Made by a program: the position numbers and the translations under genes
The notes under the pieces: generated by a model
Told to the model about the DNA's origin: nothing
Database searches by the model: none
What the model saw: the letters and a program-made list of their open reading frames with translations, nothing else
From: Viola odorata
Lineage: Eukaryota; Streptophyta; Magnoliopsida; Malpighiales; Violaceae
Assembly (NCBI GenBank): GCA_963691705.1
Contig: OY829537.1
Coordinates: 36,521,514 to 36,585,513, forward strand
Length of the DNA: 64,000 nucleotides
Reading direction: 5' to 3'
Shown here: piece by piece, positions 24,441 to 46,574 of the stretch
How the letters are laid out: each line of letters opens with the position of its first letter
Numbering within the stretch: the first letter of the stretch is position 1

Positions 24441-24521
24441 GTGAAAAATAGGGAATGTCCCAACAAGTAACCGGACGGAAAATACCCGGTGAAGTGGCTG
24501 GATGAGCAATGCCCAGTCAAA

Positions 24522-25856: not shown

Positions 25857-26481
25857 TTATAAAATGGTAGGAGACGGGGGTTGACTAGAAGAAACTCCAA
25901 TATCGTGCCTCAAGGAGCCGGGAGAAGAGAAAGGAGGAAAATCAGACTCCGTCAGATCCTCTATGCTAAAAGTAGCATGATGACGCGGCAATGCGTTAAA
26001 CGAACCAGGGGAAGCATGAAAGGGCCCGTCAACGGCCGTATTCCCCAACAAATCACCAATCTGAGGGCTGCCAGAAGGTTCCTCAGAAACAAAAAGGGTA
26101 CCGTGCTCGACAGTAGCGCGATCCTCCGACGCGCTTGTAGTTGCACGTTCATGTCGTGCCTTCTTATGGCACTTTTGCAAAACTTGTGACAAATCCATGT
26201 TATCGATTGAAGGAGTAGGAACAGATGTAGCAGCAATTTCCTAGAGAAAAACGTATCAGAAAAAGGACAAAAAAGAAAAGAGAATACTAGAAAATGTTAA
26301 AAAAGCGCATACTTGAGATGACACAGGAACACCTACGGGGATATCCTCATCCACCCTAGAAAGCAGAGTAGGAGAAATAATGCTTCTTCTCCTCTTCTTT
26401 TTTCTTCTGATGCGAGAAGAAGACGCCTGAGCCCGAATAGGATTAACGGCCGCAACAGTCTCTTGCGGAGATGCTCGAACT

Positions 26482-26767
26482 TTCCATGGTGGTTTAGTGG
26501 CATGTTTTGGTTTCGAAGTGGAGTTTGGATCGGATGTGGACCGAGGGAATGGAACTTTCCCTTGAGTCTTTGGTCTTGCTGATCTCTCACTTTTGCCATT
26601 GCTTCGTTGGAAATAGGAATATTAAGGGGGCAATCCACACACATTCGCCAAGTTCCATCCTTCTTTGGTACAAGTAATACGGGAACTGCACATGGTGACA
26701 TGCTTTCTCGAATGAACCCTTTATTCAAGAGTTCATTAACTTGTTTCTGTAACTCTTTTGTTTCATC
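26482..26767 (-). other. Chimeric gag + RT fragments fused to the CRM 3' LTR
   Basis: 26482-26629 matches 32233-32380 of the CRM gag with one visible difference (c/t at 26577). 26629-26767 matches 29956-30094 of the CRM RT. The RT piece joins the 3' LTR at 26766, replacing its terminal TGATAAGC. Overlaps of 2 bases (gg and tc) mark the two joints. In minus-strand sense the order is LTR, RT, gag, the reverse of the element's own order but in the same orientation. An open frame (26854-26333) runs through and is not a normal gene. Confidence 0.9.
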
Positions 26768-27590
26768 CAGCCTCTTAAATGAAAGAAACCGAGCTTGGAC
26801 TAAGGAGGATCTAGCTTGGAGCTGCCAAATCAACGGATTAATAAGATAAAACACCAGAAGATTAGTTCAACAAGTTGGAGTAATGCAGCGGAAATTGAGA
26901 GTTGCTTGAAAATGTAAAGAAAAGGTGGTAGAACCGACCATTGGACAGAAATGTAAAGAGGGCGGGCAAGCCTCCCTTTGAGCAAGAATGTAAAGAACAA
27001 GAATGTAAATTGCTTGAATTAAATTGCGGGAATTTAAATGACAGAACGAAAGAGGAGGCAAAGCCTTCCAAAGTGCTGGAATTTAAAGGAAAGCTTGTAA
27101 ATTGCAAGAATGTAAATACTTGAATTGAAAGTTCTTGAATTTAAAGCTACAAGGTAGAAACATAAACATAAGAAGCATAAGCATTCAGTTTTATCATTCT
27201 TCAAGTTGTCCCAATGAAAGAAAGGAGCTAGCTATTTATAGAGAACTAAGTGACCACTTAGTACAAGTTGGTCCTCATAAGAAGTGTCTTTCTCCTTGTT
27301 AGTCCTTCAAGGTATTTAGGGTGAATTTTAAGCCCATTGTAGTCACTTAATGGTTCAACCGTCATGACGCTGGTGGACTGGCGTCATGATGGTGAGGTTG
27401 TTGCTCTTATTCAATGGTTTTTGGTTGGCCTCCGATATGGAGTGTAATCTTCATTCGTGTCTGTCCTTCGACTTGATGTTCATCCTTACTCATCTTGCCC
27501 TCAATCCACAATGTAAGCTTCTTGGTTAGACTCCTAGTGATTGGCCTTCTTGATGTGAGCTCTAAGGCTTCCTTGGGTATGATCGTATCA
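26766..27590 (-). repeat. CRM 3' LTR, last 7-8 bases lost
   Basis: Nearly identical to 33893-34716. It contains the last ~57 codons of pol and, on the minus strand, a TATA box (27232-27241, ctataaatag). Short units such as 'aagaatgtaaa' and 'gaatttaaa' recur at 26920-27140. Confidence 0.93.
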
Positions 27591-30500
27591 TCTCCTCCTT
27601 CTTTGAAAGGATTCGTCCTCGAATCCATTTCATCAAATTCTTGATTTTCTGCGTGATAAAGAGATAGATCATTAATATGAAAGGAGTTGCTTATTGAACC
27701 ATACTCACTAGGGATGTCAAGAACATAGGCATTGTTATTTATGCGATGGAGTATTTCGAAAGGACCATCGCCTCTTGGGCTTAATTTTCCTTGTCGTCGG
27801 CTAGGAAATCGATCTTTTCGCCAATGTAGCCACACCCATTGTCCTGGTTCCAATGATGTAGGGGTCTTCCCTTTGTTGCGCTTATGGGTCACCTTTTCGT
27901 TCATGTCTTCTATGTTGCGTTTCACCTTGGCATGTATGCTTTTCACCGTGGCTGCCTTGGTTTCTCCATCTACACATTGTATCACACTTAAGGGTAGAGG
28001 TATGAGATCAAGGGGAGTTAGTGGTTGAAATCCATATACCACTTCAAAAGGAGAGAAGCCAATAGTAGAATGATTAGCATGATTATAAGCAAATTCAATG
28101 AAAGGTATACTTTCTTCCCATTTTGTTCCATGTTTATCAACCATGACTCGCAAGAGAGAACCTAAAGTTCGATTTACTACTTCCGTTTGTCCATCGGTTT
28201 GAGGATGGCAAGTAGTTGAGAAGAGAAGTTTTGTACCCATTTTTGCCCAAAAGGTGCGCCAAAAGTGACTTAAAAACTTGGTATCCCGATCACTTACAAT
28301 GCTCTTAGGAATGCCATGTAAACGCACTACATGTAAGAAAAACAAATTAGCAATATAAGTAGCATCATGCGTTTTTGCACAAGGGATGAAATGGGCCATT
28401 TTTGAAAAACGGTCAACAACCACAAAGATGGAATCATGTCCATTCCGAGATCTTGGCAACCCTAAAATAAAGTCCATGGAGAGGTCTACCCAAGGATGGG
28501 TAGCTACGGGTAGAGGTATATATGAAGCATGAGTCATTGATTTAGATTTTGCTCTTTTACAAATGAGACAACGATTAATTACCTTGGTGACATCAATTTT
28601 CATTTTTGGCCAGAAGAAATGTACCTTTAAAACGTGAAGAGTTTTTGTGATGCCAAAGTGTCCTTGTAGTCCTCCACTATGTGCTTCTAACACAAGCAAT
28701 TCTCGAACATTAGATCTTGGTATGCAAAGCCGATTATGTTTAAACAAGAAATTTTCATGCTTCACATAATGCAAATAAGGTCCCTTAGCGCATGCTATGT
28801 ATATATCACGTAATTCATCATCATGCTCATATAAGGTTACTAAATGCGAAAAACCAAAGATCTTTGCATCAAGAGTGGTTAAGAGTACGTACCTTCTAGA
28901 AAGTGCATCAGCTACCACATTTTCCTTACCTTGTTTGTATTTGATGGTGTATGGAAAGGCTTCGATGAACTCCATCCACTTGGCATGTCTTTTGTTGAGT
29001 TTGGCTTGTCCTTGTAGAAATTTGAGGCTAAGATGGTCGGTGTGGATAACAAACTGATTTGGAAGAAGGTAGTGTTCCCATACCATCAAGGCTCTTACAA
29101 GTGCATATAGCTCACGATCATAGGTGGAGTAGTTCAATTGGGCACCATTAAGTTTTTCACTAAAGTAAGCGATAGGACGTCCTTCTTGAGTTAAGACAGC
29201 TCCAAGGCCAATTCCACTAGCATCACACTCAAGTTCAAATGCTTTGTTGAAATCAGGAAGGGCTAGTATAGGTGTTTGGGAAAGGTGCCCTTTAAGCTCT
29301 TGGAAAGCCTTTTCTTGTCTTTCATTCCACTCAAATGTCACATTTTTCTTTGTTAATTCATTAAGTGGTGCGGCAAGTGTTGAAAAATTTGGAACAAAGC
29401 GTCGGTAGAAGCTTGCTAGACCATGGAAAGACCTCACATCACTTGCGTTCTTAGGTGTTGGCCACTCCTGAATGGCTTTCACCTTTTCGTCATCAACCTG
29501 GACGCCATCTACACTTACCACAAAACCAAGAAAGTGCACACTATCCAAACAGAATTCACATTTAGACATCTTGGCATATAACTTGTTAGTTCGAAGTGTA
29601 AAAAGTATGGTGCGAAGATGTGCAATGTGTTCACTCATCGAACGGCTATAAATAAGTATGTCATCAAAATAAACGACCACATATTTCCCAATAAATTCAC
29701 GCAAAACATGGTTCATCAAACGCATGAAAGTACTAGGGGCATTAGAAAGTTCAAAAGGCATTACCATCCATTCGTAGAGGCCGTATTTGGTTTTGAATGC
29801 AGTCTTCCACTCATCTCCCTCTTGCATGCGGATTTGGTGGTATCCGCTCATCAAGTCTATTTTGGAGTAGACTTTGCTTCCACTTAACTCATCTAACATG
29901 TCATCAAGACGTGGTATAGGATGCCTATATCTTACGGTGATTTTGTTTATGGCTCGGCAATCCACACACATTCGCCAAGTTCCATCCTTCTTTGGTACAA
30001 GTAATACGGGAACTGCACATGGTGACATGCTTTCTCGAATGAACCCTTTATTCAAGAGTTCATTAACTTGTTTCTGTAACTCTTTTGTTTCATCTGGATT
30101 ACATCTATAGGCGGGCCTATTGGGCAAGGCTGATCCCAGGATTAGATCAATTCGATGTTCAATGCCTCGGATAGGAGGAAGGCCGCTTGGCATCTCCTTA
30201 GGAAACACGTCATCAAACTCCTGCAAAAGAGAAACAATTGGACTTGGTAGAGTAGAAGGGTCAGAATGAACATTTAGACAATGTTCTTTGTACCGAAGGA
30301 CAAAGCATATCTTGCTGGTTTCGTAGGCATGTTTTAGAGCTTTTCCTTTGACAAAAACACTCATTGGTTTTACTTTGCTCTCTTTTTGTTTTAACTCAAT
30401 CTCGCTACTATGCTTACTTTTTTCATGGTGTGTATTGCTCTCTTTTCTGACTTTCTTCTCTCCACTCTTTTTGTTTTCTTTGATTTTTTGTAGTAAATGA

Positions 30501-32743
30501 AATTCAGCACTCGTTTTTTCCATTTTTCTTTGATCATCACGAACTTTTAGGAGAGATAGGGGTAGAATGCTGAATTTCTTCCCTTTGTGAGTTAAATGTA
30601 CCTTGTTCGTATGACCATCATGTATGACTTTTCTATCAAACTGCCACGGTCGTCCAAGAAGTAAGTGACTTACATCCATGGGAACGACATCACAAATTCG
30701 TTCATCTTCATATCCGCCTATTTTGAAGGAAATAAGCACTTGCTCGTTCACCTTTACTTCGCCACTATCATTGAACCAATGTAACGAATAGGGATTAGGG
30801 TGTTTTGTCGTGGGCAAATTTAATTGATGCACAAGTAGATGGCTAGCGGCATCTACTACACTTCCATTGTCAACGATCAAAGAGGCGCTCTTGCCTTGGA
30901 TTTCAAAGTGAGAATGGAAGAGATTTTCTCTTTGTTCAAGGCATTCGGTTTCCCCATTAGCTTGAGTAGTTAGGCTTCGTCTTATGACCAATGTCATAGT
31001 GGGAACGGGCTGGATTTCTTCTTCCTCACTACTCTCATTTATCTCTTCTTCACCAATTTCCAACTCATTGCCTTCTTCATTGTCATCATTCTCGGTTTCA
31101 TATCCTCCTTCTCGAATCATGATGACCCTCCGATTAGGGCACTTGGAAGAAATGTGGCCTCGGCCACGACATTTGTAACACTCAATGTTACTTGAAGATC
31201 TCCTTGGTGGTGCACTAGTTTGGGAATTGTTTATTGGTTTTGGTGGGGGCGTTTTAGATTGGGCCGTGTTAGGGTAAGGAGTGTATGGCTTAGGTGTAGT
31301 GACATCATTCTTTTGCAGTGGTGTGATTTTGGTATAGTCCTTTTGGTATGTGTCTTTGGAGTAAGATTTCCATGGTGTTTTGGATGGATAAGGGGTTGTT
31401 TGGGGTGAGGGGCGATTTGGATATGATTTCTTTTTGGCAGATTCATGTGCTTCCACTTTGAAAGCATAGTGCAACATTGGTTTTAAACTTTCGAACTCTT
31501 TAAGCTCAAGTTTGTACTTGATCTTATCATTAAGACCATTTAAGAATCGTGCCATGGTGATTTCTTCTTCTTCCCTTGTTTCGGTTTTTGTAAGAAGAGA
31601 TTCTAACTCATTGTAGTAGTCACCAACGGATTTGGAACCTTGTCTCAAACCTTGCAACTTATTTTGTAAGTCACGTTTGTAGGTATATGGGACGAATCTC
31701 TCTCTCATTACTCGCTTCATCTCGGCCCAAGTATTGATAGTACTTGTTCCGATTCTCTCTCTAGTCATCTTCTCCCACCAACTCACGGCATAACCATCAA
31801 ACTCCATGGCTGCAAGTTTAACCTTCTTAGGTTCAGAATATTGATGGCAATTGAAGATTCTTTGAACTTTGCCTTCCCACCTGATATATTCATCCGGATC
31901 AATGGTACCTTCAAAAATGGGAATTCGAACCTTGATGCTACTGAGGTTGTCATCAATTCTTGGTTCCCGAATTCGGTTGGCGTATTCATCATATCCATGT
32001 GGAAGATCTTCATACATGTCTTCATCTAGGGTTCTTTGGAAAGATTGGAAAGATGGAAAAGGTATCCCTTGAGAATAATTATTGCCATGTGCAAAGTTAT
32101 TGGCCACGGCCCCGTGGTGGCCTGGTGGCAAAGCGCTCCCATAGGTGGGAAAGTTGTTGTTTGAAGAAGGCGGAACATGAGACATGGTAGGTTTGTCAAA
32201 GCCCGGCGGTGGATAAGAGGATGAAGCAAAGGTTCCATGGTGGTTTAGTGGCATGTTTTGGTTTCGAAGTGGAGTTTGGATCGGATGTGGACCGAGGGAA
32301 TGGAACTTTCCCTTGAGTCTTTGGTCTTGTTGATCTCTCACTTTTGCCATTGCTTCGTTGGAAATAGGAATATTAAGGGGAACACCTTGGGCTTGTTTGC
32401 TAGGATTAACAAGATTGCGTGAGCCTCCGTCGGCCACGCTCTTGGACTTAGAGATTTCACCTCCATTTTCTTCTTCAGAGTCAGTTGTAATATGGCCATC
32501 GGTGTTGTTTTTCTTGGTTTTTATGTTTGTGTCAAGAGGTGGCTTTTGAGTTTCCGCGGGCTTGCCTTGTTCAAGTTTTTCTAATCGGGCAAGTAATCCG
32601 ATGTTGGCAGCTTGTAACTTGGCGTTGGTAGCCTGACCTTCTTCGATGAGTTGCCTCATTTGATCCATCATGGCAAACCAAGGATTAGCTTGTTCACCTT
32701 CTGATTTTATGTCACTTTGATCAGCCACACTATTTTGAGACAT
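27407..32743 (-). CDS. CRM gag-pol polyprotein, one uninterrupted frame
   Basis: The open frame reaches 32851, but the likely start is the Met at 32743 (MSQNSVADQSDIKSEGEQ), giving about 1778 aa. In order: gag (GYAVSWWEKMTRERIGTSTI, near 31760), zinc knuckle CYKCRGRGHISSKC (31141-31182), protease with VDNGS (about 30864-30875), RT with YFDDILIYS (about 29645-29671), RNase H with ECDASGIGLGAVL, integrase HHCC finger, and DDE core (VDLSMDFILGLPRSRNG, SDRDTKF, HPQTDGQTEVVNR). Next comes the C-terminal PRGDGPFEILHRINNNAYVL typical of chromoviruses. The tail SRTNPFKEGGDDT and ITRSLTKKL resembles the CRM C-terminal region. No stop or frameshift was seen. It is expected to make virus-like particles and copy its RNA; activity is inference. 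Confidence 0.93.
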   Translation of the reverse strand: MSQNSVADQSDIKSEGEQANPWFAMMDQMRQLIEEGQATNAKLQAANIGLLARLEKLEQGKPAETQKPPLDTNIKTKKNNTDGHITTDSEEENGGEISKSKSVADGGSRNLVNPSKQAQGVPLNIPISNEAMAKVRDQQDQRLKGKFHSLGPHPIQTPLRNQNMPLNHHGTFASSSYPPPGFDKPTMSHVPPSSNNNFPTYGSALPPGHHGAVANNFAHGNNYSQGIPFPSFQSFQRTLDEDMYEDLPHGYDEYANRIREPRIDDNLSSIKVRIPIFEGTIDPDEYIRWEGKVQRIFNCHQYSEPKKVKLAAMEFDGYAVSWWEKMTRERIGTSTINTWAEMKRVMRERFVPYTYKRDLQNKLQGLRQGSKSVGDYYNELESLLTKTETREEEEITMARFLNGLNDKIKYKLELKEFESLKPMLHYAFKVEAHESAKKKSYPNRPSPQTTPYPSKTPWKSYSKDTYQKDYTKITPLQKNDVTTPKPYTPYPNTAQSKTPPPKPINNSQTSAPPRRSSSNIECYKCRGRGHISSKCPNRRVIMIREGGYETENDDNEEGNELEIGEEEINESSEEEEIQPVPTMTLVIRRSLTTQANGETECLEQRENLFHSHFEIQGKSASLIVDNGSVVDAASHLLVHQLNLPTTKHPNPYSLHWFNDSGEVKVNEQVLISFKIGGYEDERICDVVPMDVSHLLLGRPWQFDRKVIHDGHTNKVHLTHKGKKFSILPLSLLKVRDDQRKMEKTSAEFHLLQKIKENKKSGEKKVRKESNTHHEKSKHSSEIELKQKESKVKPMSVFVKGKALKHAYETSKICFVLRYKEHCLNVHSDPSTLPSPIVSLLQEFDDVFPKEMPSGLPPIRGIEHRIDLILGSALPNRPAYRCNPDETKELQKQVNELLNKGFIRESMSPCAVPVLLVPKKDGTWRMCVDCRAINKITVRYRHPIPRLDDMLDELSGSKVYSKIDLMSGYHQIRMQEGDEWKTAFKTKYGLYEWMVMPFELSNAPSTFMRLMNHVLREFIGKYVVVYFDDILIYSRSMSEHIAHLRTILFTLRTNKLYAKMSKCEFCLDSVHFLGFVVSVDGVQVDDEKVKAIQEWPTPKNASDVRSFHGLASFYRRFVPNFSTLAAPLNELTKKNVTFEWNERQEKAFQELKGHLSQTPILALPDFNKAFELECDASGIGLGAVLTQEGRPIAYFSEKLNGAQLNYSTYDRELYALVRALMVWEHYLLPNQFVIHTDHLSLKFLQGQAKLNKRHAKWMEFIEAFPYTIKYKQGKENVVADALSRRYVLLTTLDAKIFGFSHLVTLYEHDDELRDIYIACAKGPYLHYVKHENFLFKHNRLCIPRSNVRELLVLEAHSGGLQGHFGITKTLHVLKVHFFWPKMKIDVTKVINRCLICKRAKSKSMTHASYIPLPVATHPWVDLSMDFILGLPRSRNGHDSIFVVVDRFSKMAHFIPCAKTHDATYIANLFFLHVVRLHGIPKSIVSDRDTKFLSHFWRTFWAKMGTKLLFSTTCHPQTDGQTEVVNRTLGSLLRVMVDKHGTKWEESIPFIEFAYNHANHSTIGFSPFEVVYGFQPLTPLDLIPLPLSVIQCVDGETKAATVKSIHAKVKRNIEDMNEKVTHKRNKGKTPTSLEPGQWVWLHWRKDRFPSRRQGKLSPRGDGPFEILHRINNNAYVLDIPSEYGSISNSFHINDLSLYHAENQEFDEMDSRTNPFKEGGDDTIIPKEALELTSRRPITRSLTKKLTLWIEGKMSKDEHQVEGQTRMKITLHIGGQPKTIE
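27577..27604 (-). other. CRM polypurine tract
   Basis: Minus strand aaagaaggaggaga lies directly before the LTR start TGATACG (LTR boundary at 27590/27591). It is the plus-strand DNA primer site and is also translated as part of pol (KEGGDD). Confidence 0.85.
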
Positions 32744-33884
32744 CGTGATGGTAATTCCTGCACAATTAACAAAGGTTAGTAGAAAACTCTCCCTCACGTG
32801 TTTAACTCTCGTGTTTAATTCACTCGTAAAAGTTGTTCTCGCCAAAGTCACTCAATGCTTTGTTTCGTGCCTTGAAACTCAAGTTATCTCTCTTTTGTTT
32901 TTGTTTTTTTTTTTTTTTTTTTTTAATAAGGACAATTACAAGTCTCAACACAAGATGTTAGGAGTACAAAACACTTTCAGGAAGGAAGGATGGACTAGCG
33001 GAAGGAAGGAAAAAAAATGAAAACTTGGACAGCAAGAGTAGGAAGAAGGATTCGAACAACAAATGTTCCAACTTTTGTTCACTTGGCAATATTTCCACTT
33101 CACAACAATCACACGAATTGATTTTGTTTTTTTTTTTTCTTTTTTTTTTTGACCAAGGGTAGGGGAAAACAAGACTTTGTTGTTCTTACTTGTTACCTTC
33201 CAATGCACAAGACTTTTGTGTAAGACCCACGTTTTCTACCCTTAAATGTAGGAGAAAAGTAGATATGTATTTGACTTTGGTGTATTCTTGTCCCCAACAA
33301 GATTGACTTGTGTACCCACTGAATACTTCTGTCTTAAACACTTAGGAAACACAAAATAAGACCTTGAGGAAGATCTAACATGACCTGATGTTCGTCCTCC
33401 CCAAGTGTTTAAACGAAATTTTTTGAAGAAGACACAACAACAACAAGATAAACACAAAAACAGTCAGATTGAGCTATTTCGCGACAGACCTTCGATCATT
33501 GACAAAACGGAATAGCAAATGACGGAATAGAATAATGAAATTTAACAGGGTTGTAACTAAGACATGGAACTACAACTTTGAAGAAGGAAAGAAGACGAAA
33601 TTTCGAAGGGAAGACACAGTAAACGGCCGAACAACACAGATCGGATTTCTCGGGTGACTTCTGCGCACTGTTTTAGTTTTGCCCAAAAGTACACGATTGA
33701 GTCCGAATTTCCTGAAGGCCAAAAGATGAAAATTGTTAAGAACAGAATGAATAAGATTGAAAAAAAATTTCAGATTTTTCTGGGAGATGAAAATCTCGAA
33801 GACGGGACAGGAAGAACACAAAATTTTCTGGACAGAAACAGAAGCGAAAACACAACTCGAAGCGGCTAGAGCTCCACTACCACT
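32744..33884 (-). other. CRM leader (5' UTR) with PBS
   Basis: Non-coding leader of about 1.1 kb between the 5' LTR and gag. PBS-like agtggtagtggagctctag is next to the LTR (33866-33884). It has long T tracts on the plus strand (32906-32925, 33128-33152). No independent gene was seen. Confidence 0.75.
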
Positions 33885-34716
33885 TGATAAGCTCCAGCCT
33901 CTTAAATGAAAGAAACCGAGCTTGGACTAAGGAGGATCTAGCTTGGAGCTGCCAAATCAACGGATTAATAAGATAAAACACCAGAAGATTAGTTCAACAA
34001 GTTGGAGTAATGCAGCGGAAATTGAGAGTTGCTTGAAAATGTAAAGAAAAGGTGGTAGAACCGACCATTGGACAGAAATGTAAAGAGGGCGGGCAAGCCT
34101 CCCTTTGAGCAAGAATGTAAAGAACAAGAATGTAAATTGCTTGAATTAAATTGCGGGAATTTAAATGACAGAACGAAAGAGGAGGCAAAGCCTTCCAAAG
34201 TGCTGGAATTTAAAGGAAAGCTTGTAAATTGCAAGAATGTAAATACTTGAATTGAAAGTTCTTGAATTTAAAGCTACAAGGTAGAAACATAAACATAAGA
34301 AGCATAAGCATTCAGTTTTATCATTCTTCAAGTTGTCCCAATGAAAGAAAGGAGCTAGCTATTTATAGAGAACTAAGTGACCACTTAGTACAAGTTGGTC
34401 CTCATAAGAAGTGTCTTTCTCCTTGTTAGTCCTTCAAGGTATTTAGGGTGAATTTTAATCCCATTGTAGTCACTTAATGGTTCAACCGTCATGACGCTGG
34501 TGGACTGGCGTCATGATGGTGAGGTTGTTGCTCTTATTCAATGGTTTTTGGTTGGCCTCCGATATGGAGTGTAATCGTCATTCGTGTCTGTCCTTCGACT
34601 TGATGTTCATCCTTACTCATCTTGCCCTCAATCCACAATGTAAGCTTCTTGGTTAGACTCCTAGTGATTGGCCTTCTTGATGTGAGCTCTGAGGCTTCCT
34701 TGGGTATGATCGTATC
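33885..34716 (-). repeat. CRM 5' LTR
   Basis: 832 bp with intact TG...CA ends. It contains the minus-strand TATA box at 34359-34368 (ctataaatag) and a copy of the pol 3' coding end. That copy differs from the 3' LTR at three sites seen by eye, two of which change an amino acid (A/S and K/T). Confidence 0.93.
34359..34368 (-). promoter_or_regulatory. TATA box of the CRM 5' LTR
   Basis: Minus strand ctataaatag, well inside the LTR, the likely core promoter for the element's genomic RNA. Confidence 0.6.
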
Positions 34717-35797
34717 AGTCGACAGTCGCAACAGTTTCTTGGGAAGATGCTTGAACAGGATTAATGGCAGCGGCGACAGTGGCAACTTCCTCTCTTTCCT
34801 TCTTCTTCTAAGCTCTTCTCTCCCGACGTCTTATGCACTCTAGTTTCCAACCACGTGGGGGAACTGCACAATAACGAGATAACGTCAGCGTTAGTATTTC
34901 CTAGAACAATAAAGAAAATGGCAAAACACTCACCAACAACACATTCTCGGAGGTCAATTCCGCAGGACAATTTGCGAGTATGGACGCTGAAGTCCAGTTG
35001 AAGCAATGTGTTCAACCAACCTTGCTTGGTTGAAGGAAGAGGTTGTCGCTTACCCCAGGGCCCGTCTTTGATGGCATGGTTAAAGCCAGTCCTCCACCAG
35101 GGGCCAGGCAGATCAATAACAAAAAATCCATCTTTCCAACCAGAAATGGAAGACTCAATATGCATGAGTTTCCAGGTAAAGGGTTTTAGTGATTCGTCAT
35201 CATAACGAGGCGCTATCGCTATCACGCCTCTATGAGAATATAATTGAAAAAGAGAACGAAGCAACAAAAGGGAGGGAGAAGCAATCTCCTTAAATCTACA
35301 TAGTTTTATAAAGGCATAAATACAACAGTATGCATTCGGGCTCAGTTGGGCTGGATTTAAATCGAATTCAGAAAGCAATTGTTCCACTAAAGGTTCAAGA
35401 GGAAACTGGAAACCATAATTGAACATCTTGGTGTACAAGACCCTACGGTTGCCAGGTAATTCACTATTCAGACGGAGTGAATTGGGGGCAACACCAACCG
35501 AACAACCATTGAGAATATTGACGTTGTATTTAACCAACCACCGCCGAAGCACGGCCGGAGAAGTGATAGTGGAGACGGTGTTTTCAATCTTTTCCTCCCC
35601 GATAGATTTGGATCGGGGACGACGAGTTCTTGCCATATTAAAATTAAAAGGATGAAGAAAGTAACAGGGAAGAACAGATGTACCTTCTAAAGGAGTACCA
35701 GAATACCTAGACGGTGGCAAGAAGAAAGTTAAATAGCTTCTTGAGACGCTATTGAGAAAGTGAGAGTGAGAAAAGAAGGAAAAGAAATATGAGGCGT

Positions 35798-35805
35798 GTT
35801 TTATA
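35798..35805 (-). promoter_or_regulatory. TATA-like box upstream of antisense ORF B
   Basis: Minus strand TATAAAAC, 162 bp upstream of the ATG at 35636, suitably placed for an antisense promoter. Inferred from sequence only. Confidence 0.4.
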
Positions 35806-36272
35806 ACCCTAGGGGTTAATCGAAACGACTGTTGCAATACTTGTCGTTTGGTAAAAGGCGCATTAAGAAGAAGGGACGCGCGCAATGAGCACAGTTTTGG
35901 GAAAGTGAAAAGACGCTTTGATTTTAACACTCCCTAGGGGGCGCCAACTCCTAACGTCTCCACGAAGGGACACGTGTACCCTAGCCATTATGACTTCCTC
36001 CATCGCATTAATGGGAGATTCTCGAGCATTAAATGCTCTGAAAAGCGAGATCGGCTCCTAGATTACCATATTTGAAATAGACACAATAACGCGTCAATCG
36101 AGATAACGCGAGATAAAGCATTAAGGCAATCAGCAGCTGTCGAGTTACAACTAACCAAAACACCGATAAAGGAGGAAGAAAATGCTACAAAGCTCAATTG
36201 TTAATCAAAGGAGCCCAAACATTATTACAAAGAGAATGACGTCAATATTCGAACATAAAAAGAAAAGCACAA

Positions 36273-37565
36273 CTACATGGGAGGAGCAAAGGTTTCCACG
36301 CCCTCCGCGGCATTTGGATCATCTGATAATGGTAGCGTATCAAAATCGTTGTCGTCACCCGTCTCTTCTTCGTCCAAGGAAGGAAGACCTTCTTTGCTCC
36401 CGTCAATCTCGCCCATTCTCTTGGAAATGTATATTGCTACTTTAGATGGGTCGAAGTGGTTATGGTTGTAGCAATCCGTGTACCCAGCGTTAACGGACCA
36501 CATGGTTTTTCTCTTCCACCACTCAATCTTCAACGGGGCTCTAGCCTGATTCTCATCTCGGGCCGCTATCTCCTCATGAAGAAGAGAAATCTTTGCTCTC
36601 GCAGCCGCTAGCTCTCTCTAAAGCTTCAACCGTAGCTCTTCCTTTGGATTTCTCTCTTGCCAGGTCGACACGATAATTATCCAACTTTATTTGGGTCTGG
36701 TTCTGAAGCCGCGTTACTTTCCTCACTCGAAGGAACACCTTCAGCGGTACCAGAAGATGTGGCAATATCGTGTGAAGAAGGGCCCGTTATCGGCACTGGA
36801 GGAGGACCCGTAACATCCCCAGCTGCGTTCATCTCTCTCTTCCCTGAGCCTTTTCCGTTGAGCCTTGGAAAACTAGCGAAGCCCAGATTCTGTGTCCATA
36901 TCCTCAGCGTCGTACGAAAAAACATCAGTCTTGACTACTGCCGGGCCCGAGCTAGATCCTCTCTTCCGAATGGGCAACCAATTCTCCACAAAATAAGTAA
37001 CGCGGTCAGAAATGTCACACCCCCTTTGAGGAATCGCCCCCGAAGTTCTTCTTTTCTTTAACGGGATACTATGATAGAGTGGGGCCCTAGGAAGCGAAGA
37101 GAAGGGCATTGCTGGAGGTGGCGCGGCACTCGCATGAGCGTCATCCTCTTTGGATGGCCGACTGTCAACGTCTCCTGTAAAAGGCCGCGTCAGTAGATGA
37201 AAAAGGGAAATGATAACGCTAGAATACAAAAGCTCACCTATGACGCATGCGGACAGAGGTTTATACAAGGCAAAGTTGCGGATGTGAAAAGGCATTTCCA
37301 TTTCTAACAAGGCGTCGGCATGAAGAGGAAGGCGAAAGCCATAACGAAACATTTGAAAATATAACATCCTATGGGTTCCCCATAACCTATCATGGAGTCT
37401 CATACTCCTATCTGGAAGAGTAACGCTATAACCACTAGGAAAGGTGATGTCATGACTCTCTAACTCGAGCCGCAGATCAATCTCACAAGTAAAAACACTC
37501 GTAGTATTCTCGATCTCAGAATCTAAAGGCTCCCGAGGGGTTGTCTGAGATCTCATGCGGCGCAT
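36273..37565 (-). pseudogene. Tat antisense ORF A, paralogue of ORF B
   Basis: Minus strand, starting MRRMRSQTTPREPLDSEIEN. MLYFQMFRYGFRLPLHADAL aligns with YTKMFNYGFQFPLEPLVEQL of ORF B. A 63-nt intron (37237-37175, gtgagc...tttacag) lies after ACVIG, the same place and phase as the first intron of ORF B (after ECVVG). The next exon is Pro/Ser-rich and basic (HSIPLKKRRTSGAIPQRG), then acidic. Its downstream part is broken by stops. It ends with a helical segment (NQTQIKLDNYRVDLAREKSK) and a C-terminal block GYTDCYNHNHFDPSKVAIYI that ends at 36273. The domain is shorter than in ORF B: the 'LSPNAY...GWKDGFF' half is missing. Function is unknown. Confidence 0.6.
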
Positions 37566-38074: not shown

Positions 38075-38554
38075 TCAATCCTCGTCAAGAAAACTAGAAG
38101 GCAAGTAGAAATCGTCTCCTCTTGGAGTCGGCAGTTCTTCGTTAAGTAGAGAGAAAGGTTTTTCGGGCTTCCCCTCCGTGTCCTGCTCCGATTGGAGGTC
38201 CTTCAAAAGCCTTTTTCCCTTCAAAGGAGACGTATGAGAGCCCTCCTAGGCGGCAGGAGATGGAATGTCAAGATAATCACAACGAGCAGGAATCCCTTCC
38301 CCGGACATGAAACGTCTGAGGTGAGGAAACAATACGTCATCAACCACTCTTGGCCAATCAGAAGCCATAAAGGAAGAAGAGTCAAAGCAGGTGTCAAACG
38401 CTCGAGAGGCATTATTCTTCGACCTCTTACGAGCCCCACGATGAGAAATCCGTATTCTGGGACGCGACGGAGAAGGATCGTCTAAATTGGGGGAAGTAGG
38501 AGGAGCTCTTGGGGAATCATGCTCCACTATTTCGATAGAGCATGAATCGACCAT
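38075..38554 (-). pseudogene. Tat antisense ORF C
   Basis: A minus-strand frame of 159 codons interrupted by one TAG near 38246 (DYLDIPSPAA-stop-EG). It begins MVDSCSIEIVEHDSPRAPPT, has a Pro/Arg-rich basic segment (SRPRIRISHRGARKRSK), then DWPRVVDDVLFPHLRRFMSG and an acidic end (YLPSSFLDED). I recognise no family. It lies upstream, in antisense order, of ORF A and may be an independent gene or an upstream exon of it. Confidence 0.4.
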
Positions 38555-38961
38555 GATATTCTAGGCAGATTCCACGAAGAAATGAAGGGAAAAGATGAAC
38601 AGGAAAGAGGAAAGAAAGATTCCATTAAATAGTTGTGGTGAAAAGGCATTACTACCTCTTCGTATACCCCCCAAGGATAATTAATACGCCTTGAGAATGC
38701 AAATCATCGTTACAAAATCCGATCTTGTGATCACGACTGTTTGAAATTTGTGCTGATTAAAAGGTGTCGAGAAAACTACCCAATCAGTTAGCATTGGGGA
38801 AGAGGCGTGAAGTAAATTCGAGAAACGGTCAGGAGGAATATTTATCATCACCAATCAAATTCAATGAATAAAGAGAGCAAGCGTTGTGGAAGTTTGACCA
38901 GTGCCAGACCCATTTTCAGTTGGGCTAACGTAGGTTACAGTTGGTATACCGTTTGCACAAC
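38555..38961. other. Tat internal DNA left of the Athila insertion
   Basis: Non-coding sequence upstream of antisense ORF C, up to the target duplication acaac at 38957-38961. Nothing further was recognised. Confidence 0.5.
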
Positions 38962-40362: not shown

Positions 40363-41421
40363 AATCCCCCACACTATCTTATGCTTGCCCCCAAGCATTT
40401 CTAACCTAACACAAGACTCAACAAAACAAAACACATACAAACAAAGATCAATCAGTATCGACTTCAAAGCACCCAGTTCATCACATAAGATCCACAGATA
40501 CTTAAGCTCATAGCTCCATCCAATATTACCAAGGCTTGACCAAGACCCGAAACTCACCTGATCTGATATAGTCTCATCATCGAGTGCTTAGCGATCAAAC
40601 CCTACAATTGGAAACACACAGAACAATTCCCATTTCCTTCTACCACCCCCTTCACATTGACTGAATTGAAGATTTTCAGCCTACCCCCTAGGCATTTCCT
40701 ATTTATTCTTTTCTTAACTTTTATCAGCTGAAGTTTCTTAGTTACCCTTGCTTAAATTAGGCCTGGGTACCAAGACATTCGAATTTTCCTTTTTTAGAGC
40801 TGATTGTAGTTCCTTGGATATTCTTGCTTAAATGAAGCATGAATACCAAAGCAGCAACATAACATTTTCATTCAAATTTTTTTTTTCATAGCGGCTAAAC
40901 TTCTAAAAATGATTTCAGGGGGGTAGGCCTATAGAGATAGTCAATGTGTCAAAGGCAGCAGGGTAAAGAATGCCAGTTCTGTATGTTTCCTCTCTTAAGA
41001 TTCAATCATAAAGCCCAAGTATCATGACCCTATGTAGATTAAGTGAGTTTCACAAGTATTGGAAAGATTATACCTTGGTAATAAAGCATGGACCTATGAA
41101 CTCAAGCATCTTTTGTTTCCTATGTGATGAAGTGCATACTCTGAAACTGATTTTCATGATCTTTGTTCGGACACACAAAATTTATCTACAAACATGCAAT
41201 AAAATCAAAATAAAGCATGCTCAAGACAAACAGACACGACACGAAGGCAATAATTGGAAAATGGACTTGACTCTAACTGACTCAAACAAGCAATCAGAAC
41301 AAATCAATAATAAAAATACTCCCCCACACTTGATGATACTTTGTCCTCAAAGTGTGAGAAAGAAAAAGACTCAACGATAAATGAAAAAAGAAATGACAAG
41401 GAAAGATAATACCTGGGGCAA
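40363..41421 (-). other. Athila 3' untranslated region with PPT
   Basis: The minus-strand PPT agatagtgtgggggatt abuts the LTR, and a similar 'gtgtgggggagt' occurs near 41322-41335. The rest is non-coding. Confidence 0.6.
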
Positions 41422-43500
41422 TTATGGGTTGGGTGGGAAGGTGTTTTGCATGAATTTTTCCAAGAGCTGCTGTTGTATAGCATTTGAATGCTTTTGGTCC
41501 TCAATCAGCTTCTGGATCTGAGATCCTTGCTGTTCAATAGTTTTCTGTAGAAGATCCTGGTTAGCCAAAAGCTGGGTAATCATAGATGTTATGTTTTGCA
41601 TCTCATCCCCAGCCCTGAGGTTTTGGCCTTTTGGATGCTGTGCTTCCTGGTCTGATGTAGGGGCATGCTTCTGTGCTGGGATGTTTTCTCCTACCACAAA
41701 ATCTTTTGTAAAAATGAAGTTCCCTCCGTTCTTTGCAGAAAAGATGTGGTCAGGAGTAGGAGTGAAACCTGTGTTACTGCGCAGCACACGATTCTCATCC
41801 AGGTGAAAGTAACCCATGGCATCCAAGGATTTTAAATCTAGAATGCGCAAATCAGCCGATTTAAACAAATCGCAAGTAGACACATCTAGACCCCTATGTT
41901 GGACAGCAAAGGTAGTAATCAAGGATCCCAATGACATTTTATTCTTAACAGACTTGAATTGCTTACAAAGCCAAAAGCCTAAATTCAGTTTATGCTCATT
42001 CACCATACACTAAAGAAAGAACAATTCTTGTTTACAAATCACACTAGTAATACCAGTCTTTCCAGAAAAATTGATGGCTAAAAACCTATGAATGATCCTA
42101 AGTGATAAATCTAGAATAGCATGTGCCTTGGCATGGCTATCATCAAAAGTTGCAGCAGGATCATTAGTAATTTGTTTCTATGCCTCATGCTTATCAAACA
42201 GTGGAAATTCAGGCTAATCACTTAAGCAATTAACATACCAGTCAGATGTCAATTCATTCTCAGGCACAAAACCAATAAACACATTAAATTCATCCATGGT
42301 ATAGTGGGCATGTTTGTTCATCAATCTGAAGTTAACCTCTTTAACACCTACTTTCTTTTTAGTATTCATCCAAAAGGAAGCATAAAATTCTAGTGTGAGC
42401 TCTAAGAAAGCAGGTTGTTCAAGGAAAAACAAAGGCTCCCATCCTATATTCTGGATATACTTAGTGAGAGGATCAACAAGCTCAAGATCAGACAGCAACT
42501 GATAATCACAACGGGCGCATGCAATCACATCATATTCATATTTAATGGCTAAGCGTTCAATAGATTCAAGATCATCAAAGTTAAGCCAACCCTTGAGATT
42601 TTCAAGGGTTGGTACCTGCTTTGAAGCTCTGCCTCCTTTAGCTCTGGACTTGACTCTCACATGGACTTTTTGCTCCATCTGGGCTGCTTGTTGAGAAGGC
42701 ATCCCAGGCTTTTGTACCTTGTTGAGGGGTATATGGGTGCTTTTCTGCTCAGGCCTGGTACTGGATGCATTGGCCTTGGTTTTGATCCTCTTGGCTTTGG
42801 TCTGACTGCGACTGGCTTCATCATCAGGCCTGATGGAAGCAACATTTTCTGGGACCTCTGGGATTTTGCCTTCTGGCTCTTTCCTTTTCTCCCCCACACT
42901 GATCTTCTTTGGGGCCGACTTCTCAAGAACCTGGTGTTGTTTCCCTTTTTTCAGGAGAGATAAGGGGATATCCTCAGATTCCACCTCGGAATCATCAACG
43001 ACCTCTGCTGGTTTGATTTTGTAGGTGGGATCAGAAGTGGTTTCTTCACCGGAGCTAGTGAAATTATGCTCTAGTGACTCAACTATCTGATCAACGGTCG
43101 GCTCAGCTTGGGCTGCTCCGTCTGGAACTGATTCTTCTACCTGACCTGATGGGTCTGGTAGAAGAATCTCATAAACATGCTCTACAACCTGCTCTTGCTG
43201 CAAATCATCGACCACTGGAGACGATAGTGGTGGCGACTGTTCTAGTGGACCCGGCGAGGCAATAGGAGTAGGGTTTTCAGGTTGTGGCGGTGGGGTAGCA
43301 TTTCTGGCTTTTGGAGGAGAAGGCGGTGGTGTAGGATGTTGATTGGCATCATCGCTGACAATATTATCAACCGGCGGCGATGATGGAGGAGTGCTAATAA
43401 TCACGGCCTTAGGTTTTGCTTTTGGCTTGGATTTGGCTGTTCGCTTGGTAGCTTTGCTCGAGGAGGGTTTTGTGGATCTGCTAGCTCTGGTGAGAACCAT
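41422..43500 (-). pseudogene. Athila env-like (ORF-1 family) protein, three in-frame stops
   Basis: Minus strand, starting MVLTRASRSTKPSSSKATKR, a basic then Pro-rich and acidic N-terminus of about 290 residues. The conserved core follows: LKGWLNFDDLESIERLAIKY, YIQNIGWEPLFFLEQPAFLE and LTLEFYASFW, which match the Athila ORF-1 family (PF03078 type). After stops near 42214, 42176 and 42007 (all TAG) the same frame continues: NEHKLNLGFWLCKQFKSVKN, KMSLGSLITTF, LDLKSLDAMGYFHL. It ends in a Gln-rich helix (QLLEKFMQNTFPPNP). The Trp aligned in the copy at 59.7 kb (LWCMN) is TAG here, so at least one stop is TGG to TAG. Its role is unknown in the family. Confidence 0.85.
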
Positions 43501-44073
43501 GGTGAAATTCTAGGAATTGAGGTCTGGGACTGATGAAGAAGTAGAGAAGAAAAAGAAAGATGATGGTGAATCTGCTTGATTAGGGCTTTGTTTTGTGGAA
43601 TAAAAATAGGGAGGTGTTTTAGTTTAGTTGGGGTATTTGATCGGATTTAGGATAGAGGAAGAGTTTTGGTTTGGGTGGACAACGGTCATATTAATTAAAT
43701 AATATTACCACTGGAAAAATAATGATGGGATTTATTTTCTCTCTCTTGGCTCTGATTTTTACTTTATTTCGTGAATACCCAGACTCATCTTTCTAGGACT
43801 CTTCCCCCAGCCCTGGGGTAAGAGTTACTTCTACCCACTCAAAATCTGCTTCCTAAAAATCTCTTATCCCCGACCTGGGATAAGATCAACTTCAACTACA
43901 ACCGCCTCCTGATTTTCCTGATAAAAACAATCAAACGAAATTCCATCAGATTCTTTTTCTTAAGTTTTATTCAAACTAAATAAATGGGATAAGAGTTTTA
44001 AAATGGTGCAAAGGCATGGGTTGCCTCCAATGTAGCGTCCTTCTTTTCTGTCTTGGACTAGACATGAAATTCC
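43501..44073 (-). other. Athila spacer between integrase and env-like ORF
   Basis: Non-coding sequence of about 570 bp, as is usual in Athila elements between pol and the env-like ORF. Confidence 0.55.
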
Positions 44074-44977
44074 TCATTTGTCTGGACTTGGGTGGACTTG
44101 AACTTGATCCACCGTGTAGCTCTGAAATCCTTCGTGGTAAGGTTTCAGCCTCTGTCCATTAACTTTGAACGTCATTCCCTTCTTCGTATCCTGTATATCA
44201 ATAGCACCATAAGGGTAAATGTTAACAACAATATATGGACCCATCCATCGAGATTTTAATTTCCCAGTAAAGAGTCTAAATCTAGAATTAAACAGTAACA
44301 CTTTCTGGCCCACATGAAAGGTTTTATCCTTAATGATACTGTCATGGTATTTCTTGGTTTTAGCTTTTACGAGTTGGGAGTTCTCATATGCATCTCTGCG
44401 CATCTCTTCTAATTCTTGGAGTTGTAGTTTCCTTGCTGCTGCGTCTCTTTTTAGCTCCAAGTTGCATTGCTTAATCGCCCAAAAGGACTTGTGTTCTAGT
44501 TCGACAGGAAGGTGGCATGCTTTCCCATACACTAGATTGTAGGGAGTTGTTCCAATTGGAGTTTTAAACGCTGTTCTATACGCCCAAAGAGCGTCATCTA
44601 ATCTCTGACTCCAGTCTTTTCTGTCTGGATTAACTGTCTTTGCTAGAATAACCTTCACGTCTCGGTTTGAGACTTCTGCCTGCCCATTGGTCTGGGGATG
44701 GTATGCTGTGGACACCCTATGATTGACCTGATATTTTGCAAGTAAGGCAGTAACTACTTTGTTGCAAAAGTGGTTCCCTCTGTCGCTGATTAACACCTTA
44801 GGGACTCCAAACCTGTTAAGAATGTGAGACTTTAGAAAAGAGACCACAGTTTTGGCATCATCGGCTGCAGTAGCTTTGGCCTCAACCCACTTAGATAAGT
44901 AGTCAACAACAAGTATAATGTACTGGTTTCCCCCAGACCTGGGGAAAGGACCCATAAAGTCGATTCCCTAGATATCA
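44074..44977 (-). pseudogene. Athila integrase core and C-terminus
   Basis: Minus-strand open frame beginning [20 protein letters not shown]. Catalytic residues are visible in [14 protein letters not shown] and [16 protein letters not shown]; the first Asp precedes GPFP (GIDFMGPFP). Just upstream the frame has TAG where Athila has Trp (D-stop-GIDF), then it is cut by the LTR junction at 44978. The C-terminal region is [20 protein letters not shown] and [18 protein letters not shown]. The zinc finger is missing, so it is non-functional. Confidence 0.92.
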
Positions 44978-45996
44978 AAGACTTCCAAAGAGGCACTCTA
45001 TTCGAAGTCCCTAATCATCCTAACAATCCTAAGAGACACTCTATAGGATTTAATCAGGGCAATTGATAGACGCAGGGAAAGACCTAATCCCAGGCCTGGG
45101 ATAGAGAATCGTGTCTATCCTATAAACCAGATCTGATCCTTCTTCTAGCTGTCACTAGCTAGTTGCCTTTGTATTTCTCTTGGCAATGTAGACTCCAAAG
45201 CCGCCAGAAAAGACTGTAATCGTTCCAAACCTTAAGTAAAGTTGATCAGACTTTACTAAGAACAAGGACAAGTTGTCATGCAAACAAGAAGGATAAGAAC
45301 ACAAGCATAGAGTGTGTGAAGTGCGAATTGATCTCACAACCTAGGAATCATAGCTTTGAATCCTTACTAAGAAGAAGGCGCTTAGCCTATAACAACCATA
45401 ATATAAATAATAATAAATAACAGAATATAAAAGAAATCCGAATTGTATTGAAGATAAGAGAATAGTTTAAGGTGCAACAATGGTAGAAAATCCTAGAGAG
45501 AAGAGACCCACCTCTTCTTCTCAGCGGCAGCTTTAAATAACAAAACCTATCTCTGGTTTAAAATTCAAAAGACAAAGAGAAGATAGATATCTAATCTTGC
45601 GGGATTGTTTATTTAAATACAAAAAGAGAGAATCGATCATGCTAATCGATTAAGGAGTTCTAAGCACAATCGAACTTCTTTCCTTCTGGAAGATGGCAGC
45701 TCAATTCCTTGATTTTGATCACGGCCCACGAATCAATCTTGCGGCCCAGATAGCTCATTAAGTTAGTTGACTCTGGTCAACGCTTCCAGTTTCTTGGCTT
45801 ATCCCAGGTATGGGATCATATTGTTCTTTGATTAGCAAAACAGCTTTGATACAGGCTCTTTGGACTCCTTTTGAATAATTCTGCTTCTCAGCAGCCTATC
45901 TGTGGAAAAGGAGGGAAAAAAACATCATTTAGCAGTATCATCATCCAAAAACAAATGTAAAAGGATGATGAAAAGATGACATTTTAGCGCTCTATC
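44978..45996 (-). repeat. Athila 5' LTR, truncated at the integrase junction
   Basis: 1019 bp homologous to 39346-40362. Its 3' part (minus sense) and the primer-binding site are missing. Confidence 0.9.
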
Positions 45997-46124
45997 AACA
46001 ACTCAGGGAGAATATTGCAGGCAAGGTAGTGAAAAGAGTCATTTTATTTATGGCCTAGACGACCCTAGAATACATGCACCAAAAAAAAACAAAAACAAAA
46101 GAGCATCGGAGCAATAACGAGCAG

Positions 46125-46508
46125 TCAGGTGGCGGAACCAGCATCGTCATCCCCCTCCACAAAAGGAATATCCCTCAGAGCATCAGCAATGGAGGTCAGT
46201 TCATAGGAGGAGGCTCTCATGCCCTTCAAACAGCACCCCAGCAAATCCTTCCTTTGTTGCAACATAGTGATAACTACCTAGATATGAGCAACAGAAGCAA
46301 CTATCTTCGACACATTCTCCAGAGGGTTGAAATCCACCATGGAGGCCGTATTTTGCCTAGGCAATAGAGGACTTAACATCCCCTGGAGCTCCAGAACATC
46401 TTCCGCAGTCTTGGTCACTATGGTCTCCAGGAAACCAATGTCAGCCTGGGTGAGATTCTTCAGAGTGTGAGCCTTTGTGATTAAGAAATTTTTGGTCACT
46501 TCATCCAT
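46125..46508 (-). pseudogene. Tat antisense ORF D, small helical protein
   Basis: A minus-strand frame of 127 codons with one TAG near 46278. It begins MDEVTKNFLITKAHTLKNLT, continues GFLETIVTKTAEDVLELQGM and, after the stop, LLGCCLKGMRASSYELTSIA with an acidic end (VEGDDDAGSAT). It lies between the Athila insertion and the Tat 3' LTR. Composition suggests an alpha-helical protein. I recognise no family. A TATA-like box is 58 bp upstream. Confidence 0.45.
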
Positions 46509-46565: not shown

Positions 46566-46574
46566 CCATTTATA
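46566..46574 (-). promoter_or_regulatory. TATA-like box upstream of antisense ORF D
   Basis: Minus strand TATAAATGG, 58 bp upstream of the ATG at 46508, well suited as a core promoter for antisense transcription from the 3' end of the Tat element. Confidence 0.5.

What the first reader, a model, noticed from the sequence alone, without database searches (positions are those of the whole stretch)
25857..46508. Antisense gene block (at least four ORFs) inside one Tat-lineage retrotransposon
Between integrase and the 3' LTR of the 17.85-47.2 kb element, the strand opposite to gag-pol carries ORF C (38554-38075), ORF A (37565-36273), ORF B (35636-25857, split by a CRM insertion) and ORF D (46508-46125). 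TATA-like motifs precede B and D at plausible distances. Single antisense ORFs are known from plant Tat elements; a block of four, two of them paralogous and spliced, is unusual. They could regulate host silencing, chromatin targeting or sense expression. That role is inference.
Basis: partly seen in the sequence, partly recalled or inferred. Interest (0 to 1): 0.78.

Follow-up and report, generated by a model that had tools for sequence, protein, structure and literature searches.

The report
Antisense four-gene block in plant retrotransposon
A large plant jumping gene carries, on the strand opposite its replication genes, four conserved genes, some with promoter-like boxes or introns; large antisense genes are known in this group, but the two small ones here seem to have been overlooked and one is nearly as constrained as the replication enzyme.

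Summary
The antisense block is real. In 15 of 20 related copies fetched from the window's own plant genome, D, C, A and B lie in the same order and strand. All four evolve as coding sequence: pooled dN/dS is 0.15-0.17 for D and 0.26-0.53 for pieces of B, A and C, against 0.67-2.37 in four wrong frames and 0.27-0.54 in the fifth. D (0.14) approaches RT (0.08) in seven elements. The longest invariant run upstream of D, C and B is a TATA-like box; A has none. B has two antisense-strand introns (GT-AG in 21 of 21 and 15 of 19 sequences). A and B are Transposase_28 paralogues.

Corrections: the window copy is decayed. C and D carry in-frame stops, A has two deletions and looks unspliced in relatives, B lost its 3' end.

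Antisense Transposase_28 ORFs are a published Retand hallmark. New here: two small genes below the size cut-offs of two surveys, promoter-like boxes for three genes, and introns. Function (nuclear accessory regulators) is inferred.

The parts
17852..18107 (+). left LTR of the Tat/Retand-like element (internal deletion of ~220 bp)
   Evidence: 17852-18063 matches 46717-46929 at 94.8%, 18059-18107 matches 47150-47198; TGATAA start
46717..47198 (+). right LTR, TGATAA...TTATCA; flanks TTTAT / TTTGT look like a target-site duplication with one change
18303..20561 (+). gag region (two ORFs), sense strand
   Evidence: PF03732 E 2e-6 in 19044-20558
20984..24059 (+). pol: RT, RNase H, RVT_3 (second RNase H-like), integrase, broken by stops and frameshifts
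   Evidence: RVT_1; RT_RNaseH_2, RVT_3, Integrase_H2C2, rve; frames
24172..24723 (.). two tandem arrays (92-bp and 53-bp units) just after pol
46568..46575 (-). TATA box of gene D (CTATAAAT), 67 nt before its ATG
   Evidence: longest invariant run in the 200 bp upstream of 16 sequences, 0 of 20000 column permutations as long
46125..46508 (-). gene D, 127 codons in relatives, one in-frame stop at 46278-46280 in this copy
   Evidence: dN/dS 0.15-0.17
38622..38632 (-). TATA-like box of gene C (CTATTTAATGG), 78 nt before its ATG
   Evidence: longest invariant run in 13 sequences, 0 of 20000 permutations
38075..38554 (-). gene C, ~154-159 codons, basic cluster then acidic end (by eye); one in-frame stop at 38246-38248 in this copy
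36273..37565 (-). remnant of gene A: in L020 one frame of ~774 codons beginning with a Transposase_28 domain; here two deletions (~364 and ~660 bp against L009) and frame changes
35802..35807 (-). core of the TATA box of gene B (GTTATA), 171 nt before its ATG
   Evidence: longest invariant run in 19 sequences, permutation p 0.003; TATAA in 19 of 19
34934..35636 (-). gene B exon 1 with Transposase_28 domain
   Evidence: PF04195 30.4 bits; dN/dS 0.26 for 34764-35636, which also spans intron 1
34864..34933 (-). gene B intron 1 (GTGAGT...TACTAAC...TGCAG), 70 bp
   Evidence: GT and AG at the same columns in 21 of 21 aligned sequences incl. the window
34718..34863 (-). gene B exon 2, part before the nested insertion (contains a stop in this copy)
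26482..34717 (-). nested minus-strand gypsy element (LTRs 26766-27590 and 33893-34717 by alignment, 99.6%) with ~285 bp of self-templated filler at 26482-26767
26313..26481 (-). gene B exon 2, part after the nested insertion
   Evidence: tblastn piece B2a; alignment
26241..26312 (-). gene B intron 2 (GTATGC...CTGAT...CTCTAG), 72 bp
   Evidence: GT in 16, AG in 16, both in 15 of 19 aligned sequences (11 of 11 in the first, smaller set)
25857..26240 (-). gene B exon 3, truncated by a deletion of 851-880 bp that removed later coding sequence
   Evidence: dN/dS 0.53; deletion against L009/L010
39343..45998 (-). second nested minus-strand LTR retroelement (LTRs 96.8%) lying between D and C

Best explanation
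The region is a cassette of accessory genes carried by a Retand-type Ty3/gypsy retrotransposon on the strand opposite gag-pol. SHOWN by sequence: four collinear coding units (D, C, A, B), conserved across many copies under purifying selection; invariant TATA-like boxes ahead of D, C and B; two intron-like gaps with antisense-strand splice signals in B; A and B are tandem paralogues with an N-terminal Transposase_28 domain. FOLLOWS from established knowledge: introns lying antisense to the genomic RNA are not removed when that RNA is made, so a retroelement can keep them, whereas sense introns would be lost; conserved antisense splice sites therefore point to selection for a spliced antisense mRNA. 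INFERRED: the host RNA polymerase II transcribes the cassette from the integrated copy without using the LTR promoter, the proteins enter the nucleus and act in trans on sense expression or on the integrating DNA (A and B binding DNA or chromatin through Transposase_28 and oligomerising through helix-rich C-terminal parts; C, basic then acidic, as a transcription-type factor; D, small and the most constrained, as the core partner).
For: Order and strand kept in 15 of 20 copies. Pooled dN/dS: D1 0.15, D2 0.17 (35 sequences each, window included); B1 0.26 (21), A3 0.27 (18), C1 0.41 (30), C2 0.42 (34), A1 0.45 (18), B2b 0.53 (19); +1, +2 and two reverse frames 0.67-2.37; the fifth wrong frame, which shares wobble positions, 0.27-0.54 and above the true frame in 8 of 8 pieces. 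RT 0.08 vs D 0.14 in seven elements, RT and D paired by distance and strand. Independent third-position scan. D frame stop-free in 31 of 34 and 32 of 33 near-full sequences for its two halves. A D homologue in a public record of unnamed organism, P0003, 56% over the whole of D with the same start Met and end. TATA runs. Splice signals. PF04195 for B and for A of L020. Published context: every representative Retand element has an antisense ORF, Transposase_28 is predicted to bind DNA (PMC11963269); Grande gene23 antisense, own promoter, nuclear protein (as told in PMC7264820).
Against: No transcript, protein or binding data. Structure models of B and D were poor (mean pLDDT 37 and 41), so no fold supports DNA binding; the helix-rich C-terminal parts of A and B and the charge pattern of C are read by eye. 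D and C have no Pfam family above cut-off; C has no match in the protein search. A lacks a conserved TATA run (permutation p 0.44). Intron 2 signals fail in 4 of 19 sequences, three of them among the most diverged. The scan shows no periodicity at the start of B exon 3 and little in the middle of A. The genes are decayed in the window and in many copies. The copies are not independent and were picked by similarity to B or D, which favours conserved ones.
Confidence: 0.6

Rival explanations
1. The proteins act in the replication cycle itself (particle or pre-integration complex, nuclear import, target-site choice) rather than on transcription; Transposase_28 and helix-rich parts would tether cDNA or integrase to chromatin.
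For: D is almost as constrained as RT, as expected of a replication factor; A and B pair a conserved domain with long C-terminal parts. Vicient & Casacuberta 2020 suggest a nuclear or pre-integration role.
Against: Antisense expression from separate promoter-like boxes would uncouple these proteins from gag-pol, odd for particle components. No domain typical of integration factors was found.
Confidence: 0.25
2. The antisense RNA, not the proteins, is the functional product: it pairs with sense RNA and feeds or buffers siRNA silencing; the ORFs are incidental.
For: Vicient & Casacuberta 2020 discuss dsRNA regulation; the block lies in the sense transcript.
Against: dN/dS below the wrong-frame controls and third-position periodicity at the four tracks. 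An RNA-only role does not predict these.
Confidence: 0.08
3. The block is captured host genes or a fused second transposon with no role for the element.
For: Genes with own TATA boxes and introns look host-like.
Against: Conserved as a unit within the element across diverged copies, under selection approaching that of RT for D. Outside the own genome one D record was found; its genomic setting was not seen.
Confidence: 0.05

Closest known systems
Retand lineage antisense ORFs with Transposase_28/TRP28 (Vicient 2025, PMC11963269; parts 1-3 of 5 of the text read, term passages)
   Same: Long region between pol and 3' LTR, tandem arrays after pol, antisense ORFs with PF04195; every representative element has at least one antisense ORF.
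   Different: Here two TRP28 paralogues stand side by side with two small conserved genes below that paper's 600-bp cut-off, with conserved TATA-like boxes and two introns; its text has 0 occurrences of intron and of TATA. Whether any of its 63 elements carries two TRP28 ORFs could not be seen (figures and supplements not held).
Grande gene23 of maize (as told in PMC7264820, parts 1-2 of 3; original paper not seen)
   Same: Antisense accessory gene between pol and 3' LTR, transcribed from its own promoter, nuclear product.
   Different: One gene is described, against four units here; no sequence comparison with gene23 was run.
ORF2 of common bean Ty3-gypsy families (Gao 2014, PMC4093653; passages)
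   Same: Antisense to pol, 15 families with an ORF2 of 211-939 aa, some with an SMC-like domain.
   Different: One ORF2 per family listed; no small companions reported in the passages seen.
eORF-3'R of Neumann 2019 (PMC6317226; passages)
   Same: Extra reverse ORFs help mark Tat subclades; Transposase_28 in 23% of Retand elements.
   Different: The survey counted ORFs of at least 250 codons, so D (127) and C (~154) fall below it.
HBZ and antisense genes of human T-cell leukaemia viruses (as told in PMC11963269 and PMC7264820, and a listed abstract)
   Same: Works like: antisense, spliced, nuclear regulatory protein of an LTR element.
   Different: No homology claimed or tested; the HTLV antisense promoter lies in the 3' LTR, here the TATA boxes are internal.

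Membership tests
Tat clade / Retand lineage (Ty3/gypsy) | second (archaeal-type) RNase H between RNase H and integrase (Neumann 2019; shared with Ogre) | tested here: met
   order RVT_1, RT_RNaseH_2, RVT_3, Integrase_H2C2/rve; RVT_3 taken as that domain, no phylogeny made
Tat clade / Retand lineage (Ty3/gypsy) | antisense ORF(s) with Transposase_28 between pol and 3' LTR | tested here: met
   B 30.4 bits over cut-off 26.2; A of relative L020 34.0 bits; A of the window itself no hit
Tat clade / Retand lineage (Ty3/gypsy) | long pol-3' LTR region, often with tandem arrays | tested here: met
   arrays 24172-24723; 24060-46716 less the two nested insertions and filler is ~7.8 kb by arithmetic, longer than the 2,933-6,566 bp of PMC11963269
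Tat clade / Retand lineage (Ty3/gypsy) | RT sequence groups with Retand rather than Ogre | not tested
   no reference RT set was at hand
Tat clade / Retand lineage (Ty3/gypsy) | PBS type and TSD length | tested here: inconclusive
   TTTAT/TTTGT flanks, one mismatch, in a tandem repeat; PBS not matched to a tRNA
Transposase_28 (PF04195) family | match over the curated cut-off | tested here: met
   gene B, gene A in relative L020
any known family for genes C and D | Pfam match over cut-off | tested here: not met
   PHROGs, NCBIfam and PADLOC not searched
HBZ-like antisense regulators (works-like only) | spliced antisense transcript and nuclear regulatory protein shown | not testable with these tools
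   splice signals conserved; no RNA or protein data

The most novel reading that the evidence does not exclude
Retand-type elements of this plant carry a four-gene antisense regulatory programme with separate promoters (at least three) and spliced mRNA, in which D is a previously undescribed, strongly selected 127-aa protein family that ORF-length cut-offs have hidden; such elements would be two-strand genomes, with replication genes on one strand and their controllers on the other, comparable in layout to complex retroviruses.
Probability: 0.5. Interest if true: 0.75.

Novelty: new variant of a known kind. Interest (0 to 1): 0.6.

Why it matters
Antisense ORFs of plant Retand elements are widespread but of unknown function. 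This case gives testable handles: TATA-like boxes, two introns whose splicing would prove an antisense mRNA, and a small protein under selection approaching that of RT. It also suggests that published surveys with cut-offs of 600 bp or 250 codons missed part of the gene content of an abundant element group (the Transposase_28 profile alone gave 11,413 first-look candidates in this genome, of which 150 were scored and all 150 passed the cut-off).

Tried and rejected
Structure: models of the B exon-1 piece (291 aa, 3 sequences) and of the D homologue P0003 (147 aa, 3 rows) had mean pLDDT 37 and 41; no fold search was run on them. Scans of viral contigs with RT, B and D found no relative. A protein search with C found nothing. 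First-look genome searches score only the best candidates (106 of 14,704; 150 of 5,921, 18,419 and 11,413), so no copy numbers are given. Whole-genome searches with A and C did not complete, nor one with P0003 to see whether it comes from this species; so 'outside the genome' is not proven for P0003, P0001 and P0002. Considered and rejected: D as a spurious ORF (dN/dS, conservation); C and D as exons of A or B (each has its own start and stop and, in 13 and 16 sequences, its own TATA-like box); sense-strand coding in the block (reverse frames of D1, C1, A3 and B1 are stop-free in at most 2 copies each; but over the short D2 and C2 pieces reverse frames are open in 17 and 13 of 33 and in 10 of 30 copies). 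My first count for intron 2, 11 of 11, came from a chosen subset; all 18 loci with the exon-3 piece plus the window gave 15 of 19. Dropped before the dN/dS counts: A1 and B1 matches under 45% identity (paralogue cross-hits), sequences covering under 40% of a piece, pairs with under 25 shared codons or no synonymous change, and codons with stops. Dropped from the TATA sets: L013 and L015 for C, L014 and L019 for B, besides loci without the start.
Full report
WHAT WAS CHECKED. The element runs from a left LTR at 17852-18107 to a right LTR at 46717-47198. The first 213 shared bases are 94.8% identical, and the left LTR lacks ~220 bp. A 47-bp tandem array flanks both sides, so the element probably inserted into that array; the flanks TTTAT and TTTGT fit a target-site duplication with one later change. 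On the sense strand are gag, RT, RNase H, a second RNase H-like domain and integrase, broken by stops and frameshifts. Two tandem arrays follow pol at 24172-24723. Domain order, antisense Transposase_28 and arrays agree with the Retand description (PMC6317226 passages; PMC11963269). I did not build an RT tree.

NESTED INSERTIONS. A minus-strand gypsy element with 99.6% identical LTRs sits in gene B (26766-34717), and another with 96.8% identical LTRs sits between D and C (39343-45998). With a substitution rate of 1.3e-8 per site and year (recalled, from rice) the LTR pairs give about 2 million years for the host element, 1.3 for the insertion between D and C and 0.14 for the one in B, in line with their nesting.

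THE FOUR TRACKS IN THE WINDOW. B exon 1 (from 35636) matches PF04195 at 30.4 bits against a cut-off of 26.2. A (from 37565) is 34% identical to B over 116 aa, E 5e-14, but has no Pfam hit itself. C (38554-38075) and D (46508-46125) are each one frame with a single in-frame stop. From the window alone C and D would be weak.

COPIES IN THE SAME GENOME. B finds 107 matches including itself and one fragment (only the best candidates are scored). I took 20 of the 106 others: the 15 best and 5 chosen from further down (four of 55-58% identity, one of 67%), 9.9 kb each. D is found in 15 of 20, C in 16 (in L024 and L025 by its second half only, the latter at E 0.001), A in 18, B in 20 by selection. 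Wherever D is found, C, A and B are too, in the order D-C-A-B on one strand (15 of 20). In L011 the nearest D match lies ~14.7 kb upstream of C on the same strand, perhaps across a nested insertion. D alone gives 150 matches (the cap), 132 without a stop in the matched part by my count of the table, the window's own included.

CODING EVIDENCE. Pooled pairwise dN/dS: D1 0.15 and D2 0.17 (35 sequences each), B1 0.26 (21), A3 0.27 (18), C1 0.41 (30), C2 0.42 (34), A1 0.45 (18), B2b 0.53 (19) (the rows dropped are told in Tried and rejected). The B1 piece includes intron 1. The same columns read in frames +1, +2 and two reverse frames give 0.67-2.37; the third reverse frame shares wobble positions and gives 0.27-0.54, above the true frame in all 8 pieces, though by 0.01 only for B2b. 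A scan of L009 against 12 other copies that assumes no frame shows third-position excess peaking at z 10.1 in D, 5.7 in C, 10.0 in A and 11.8 in B, and at most 3.5 in the spacers; it is flat at the start of B exon 3 and weak in the middle of A. D is stop-free in 31 of 34 (first part) and 32 of 33 sequences (second part). In seven elements, with RT and D paired by a distance of 10-13 kb and strand (for the window, within the element described), RT has pooled dN/dS 0.08 (pS 0.52, near saturation) and D 0.14. Caveats: copies share ancestry, pairs are not independent, and copies were found by protein similarity.

D AND C. In relatives D is 127 aa with a fixed start and, in nearly all copies printed, a fixed end. 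One public protein of unnamed organism, P0003 (147 aa, source ENA), matches over the whole of D at 56%, with the same start Met (its residue 21) and the same end; that it is from another species was not shown. Neither D nor C has a Pfam family over cut-off. C is ~154 aa, with a basic cluster near residues 30-48 and an acidic, aromatic end, read by eye; no match in the protein search.

A AND B. In L020 gene A reads as one frame of about 774 codons with two internal stops; in the other three copies viewed it is broken by more stops or frame changes. Its first 158 residues match PF04195 at 34.0 bits and window B at 36% over 153 aa. The window's A lacks ~364 and ~660 bp found in L009 (from the coordinates), the first of which removed much of the domain. 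B has two introns on the antisense strand. Intron 1 (window 34933-34864) has GT and AG at the same columns in 21 of 21 sequences, usually with TACTAAC before the acceptor. Intron 2 (26312-26241) has GT and AG in 15 of 19 sequences; the exceptions are L016 (acceptor), L027 (donor), L024 and L025 (both; their position was estimated). Read without splicing, intron 2 puts stops between the exons in the window, and intron 1 does so in L009, L017 and L018. In relatives B runs on past the position of 25857 into a further, helix-rich part by eye; the window has lost 851-880 bp there. So A and B look like an old tandem duplication with a shared layout.

PROMOTERS. In 200 bp upstream of each start, the longest invariant run is CTATAAAT for D (16 sequences, 67 nt before ATG), CTATTTAATGG for C (13, 78 nt) and GTTATA, within TATAA, for B (19, 171 nt). 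Permuting columns gave a run as long in 0, 0 and 0.3% of 20000 trials. A has no such run (44%). The test does not use the motif, but I had already seen the boxes, and permutation ignores clustering of conserved columns. This supports three separate transcription starts.

HOW IT MOST LIKELY WORKS. The host polymerase transcribes the cassette from the inserted copy through its own TATA boxes; B mRNA is spliced; the proteins then regulate the element in the nucleus. The first two steps rest on conserved signals; the last is inference from the DNA-binding prediction for TRP28 and the nuclear gene23 told in PMC11963269 and PMC7264820. Antisense introns can survive retrotransposition because the genomic RNA is made from the other strand.

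KNOWN VERSUS NEW. Known: antisense TRP28 ORFs as a Retand hallmark, their likely nuclear role, own promoter in Grande. Not found in print by my searches (listings only, apart from the papers named; and term searches inside PMC11963269, and PMC7730604): introns in these antisense genes, TATA boxes gene by gene, small companions such as D and C, or two TRP28 paralogues in one element. The library holds open-licence papers only; Steinbauerova and colleagues on extra ORFs could not be read (identifier recalled), and figures and supplements were not available. Both surveys set size limits (600 bp; 250 codons) above C and D.

Noticed in passing
window 26482-26767: Beside the 3' LTR of the nested element lie 139 bp copied from its RT region (29956-30094) and 148 bp from its gag region (32233-32380), at 99-100% identity; the LTR end looks truncated and no target-site duplication is seen, which suggests an end-joining or template-switching insertion rather than normal integration.
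   Followed up: partly
window 17629-17849 and 47199-47506: The same 47-bp tandem repeat flanks the element on both sides, so the element probably inserted into a tandem array.
   Followed up: partly
window 46278-46280; L010, L014, L026, L040: The in-frame stop of D recurs at the same codon (77) in several copies, either an inherited variant or a recurrent change.
   Followed up: no
L009 1760-1779 and 2507-2526; L020 1696-1714 and 2458-2476 (both oriented): A 19-20 nt sequence next to the 3' LTR is repeated between D and C in 2 of 3 copies checked, not listed for L027; perhaps a shared promoter element.
   Followed up: partly
window 21524-21719: A 98-bp tandem duplication lies just after the RT domain of the host element.
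   Followed up: no
window 39343-45998: The second nested element has integrase directly beside its 5' LTR, leaving no room for gag and RT there, and two further minus-strand ORFs (42214-43509, 41422-42009) with no Pfam family over cut-off.
   Followed up: partly
window 7294-8959; 3592-4801 with 52033-53262: Repeats: an inverted ~350-bp pair of 88% identity about 1 kb apart, and related stretches about 48 kb apart, mostly inverted, of 75-84% identity.
   Followed up: no
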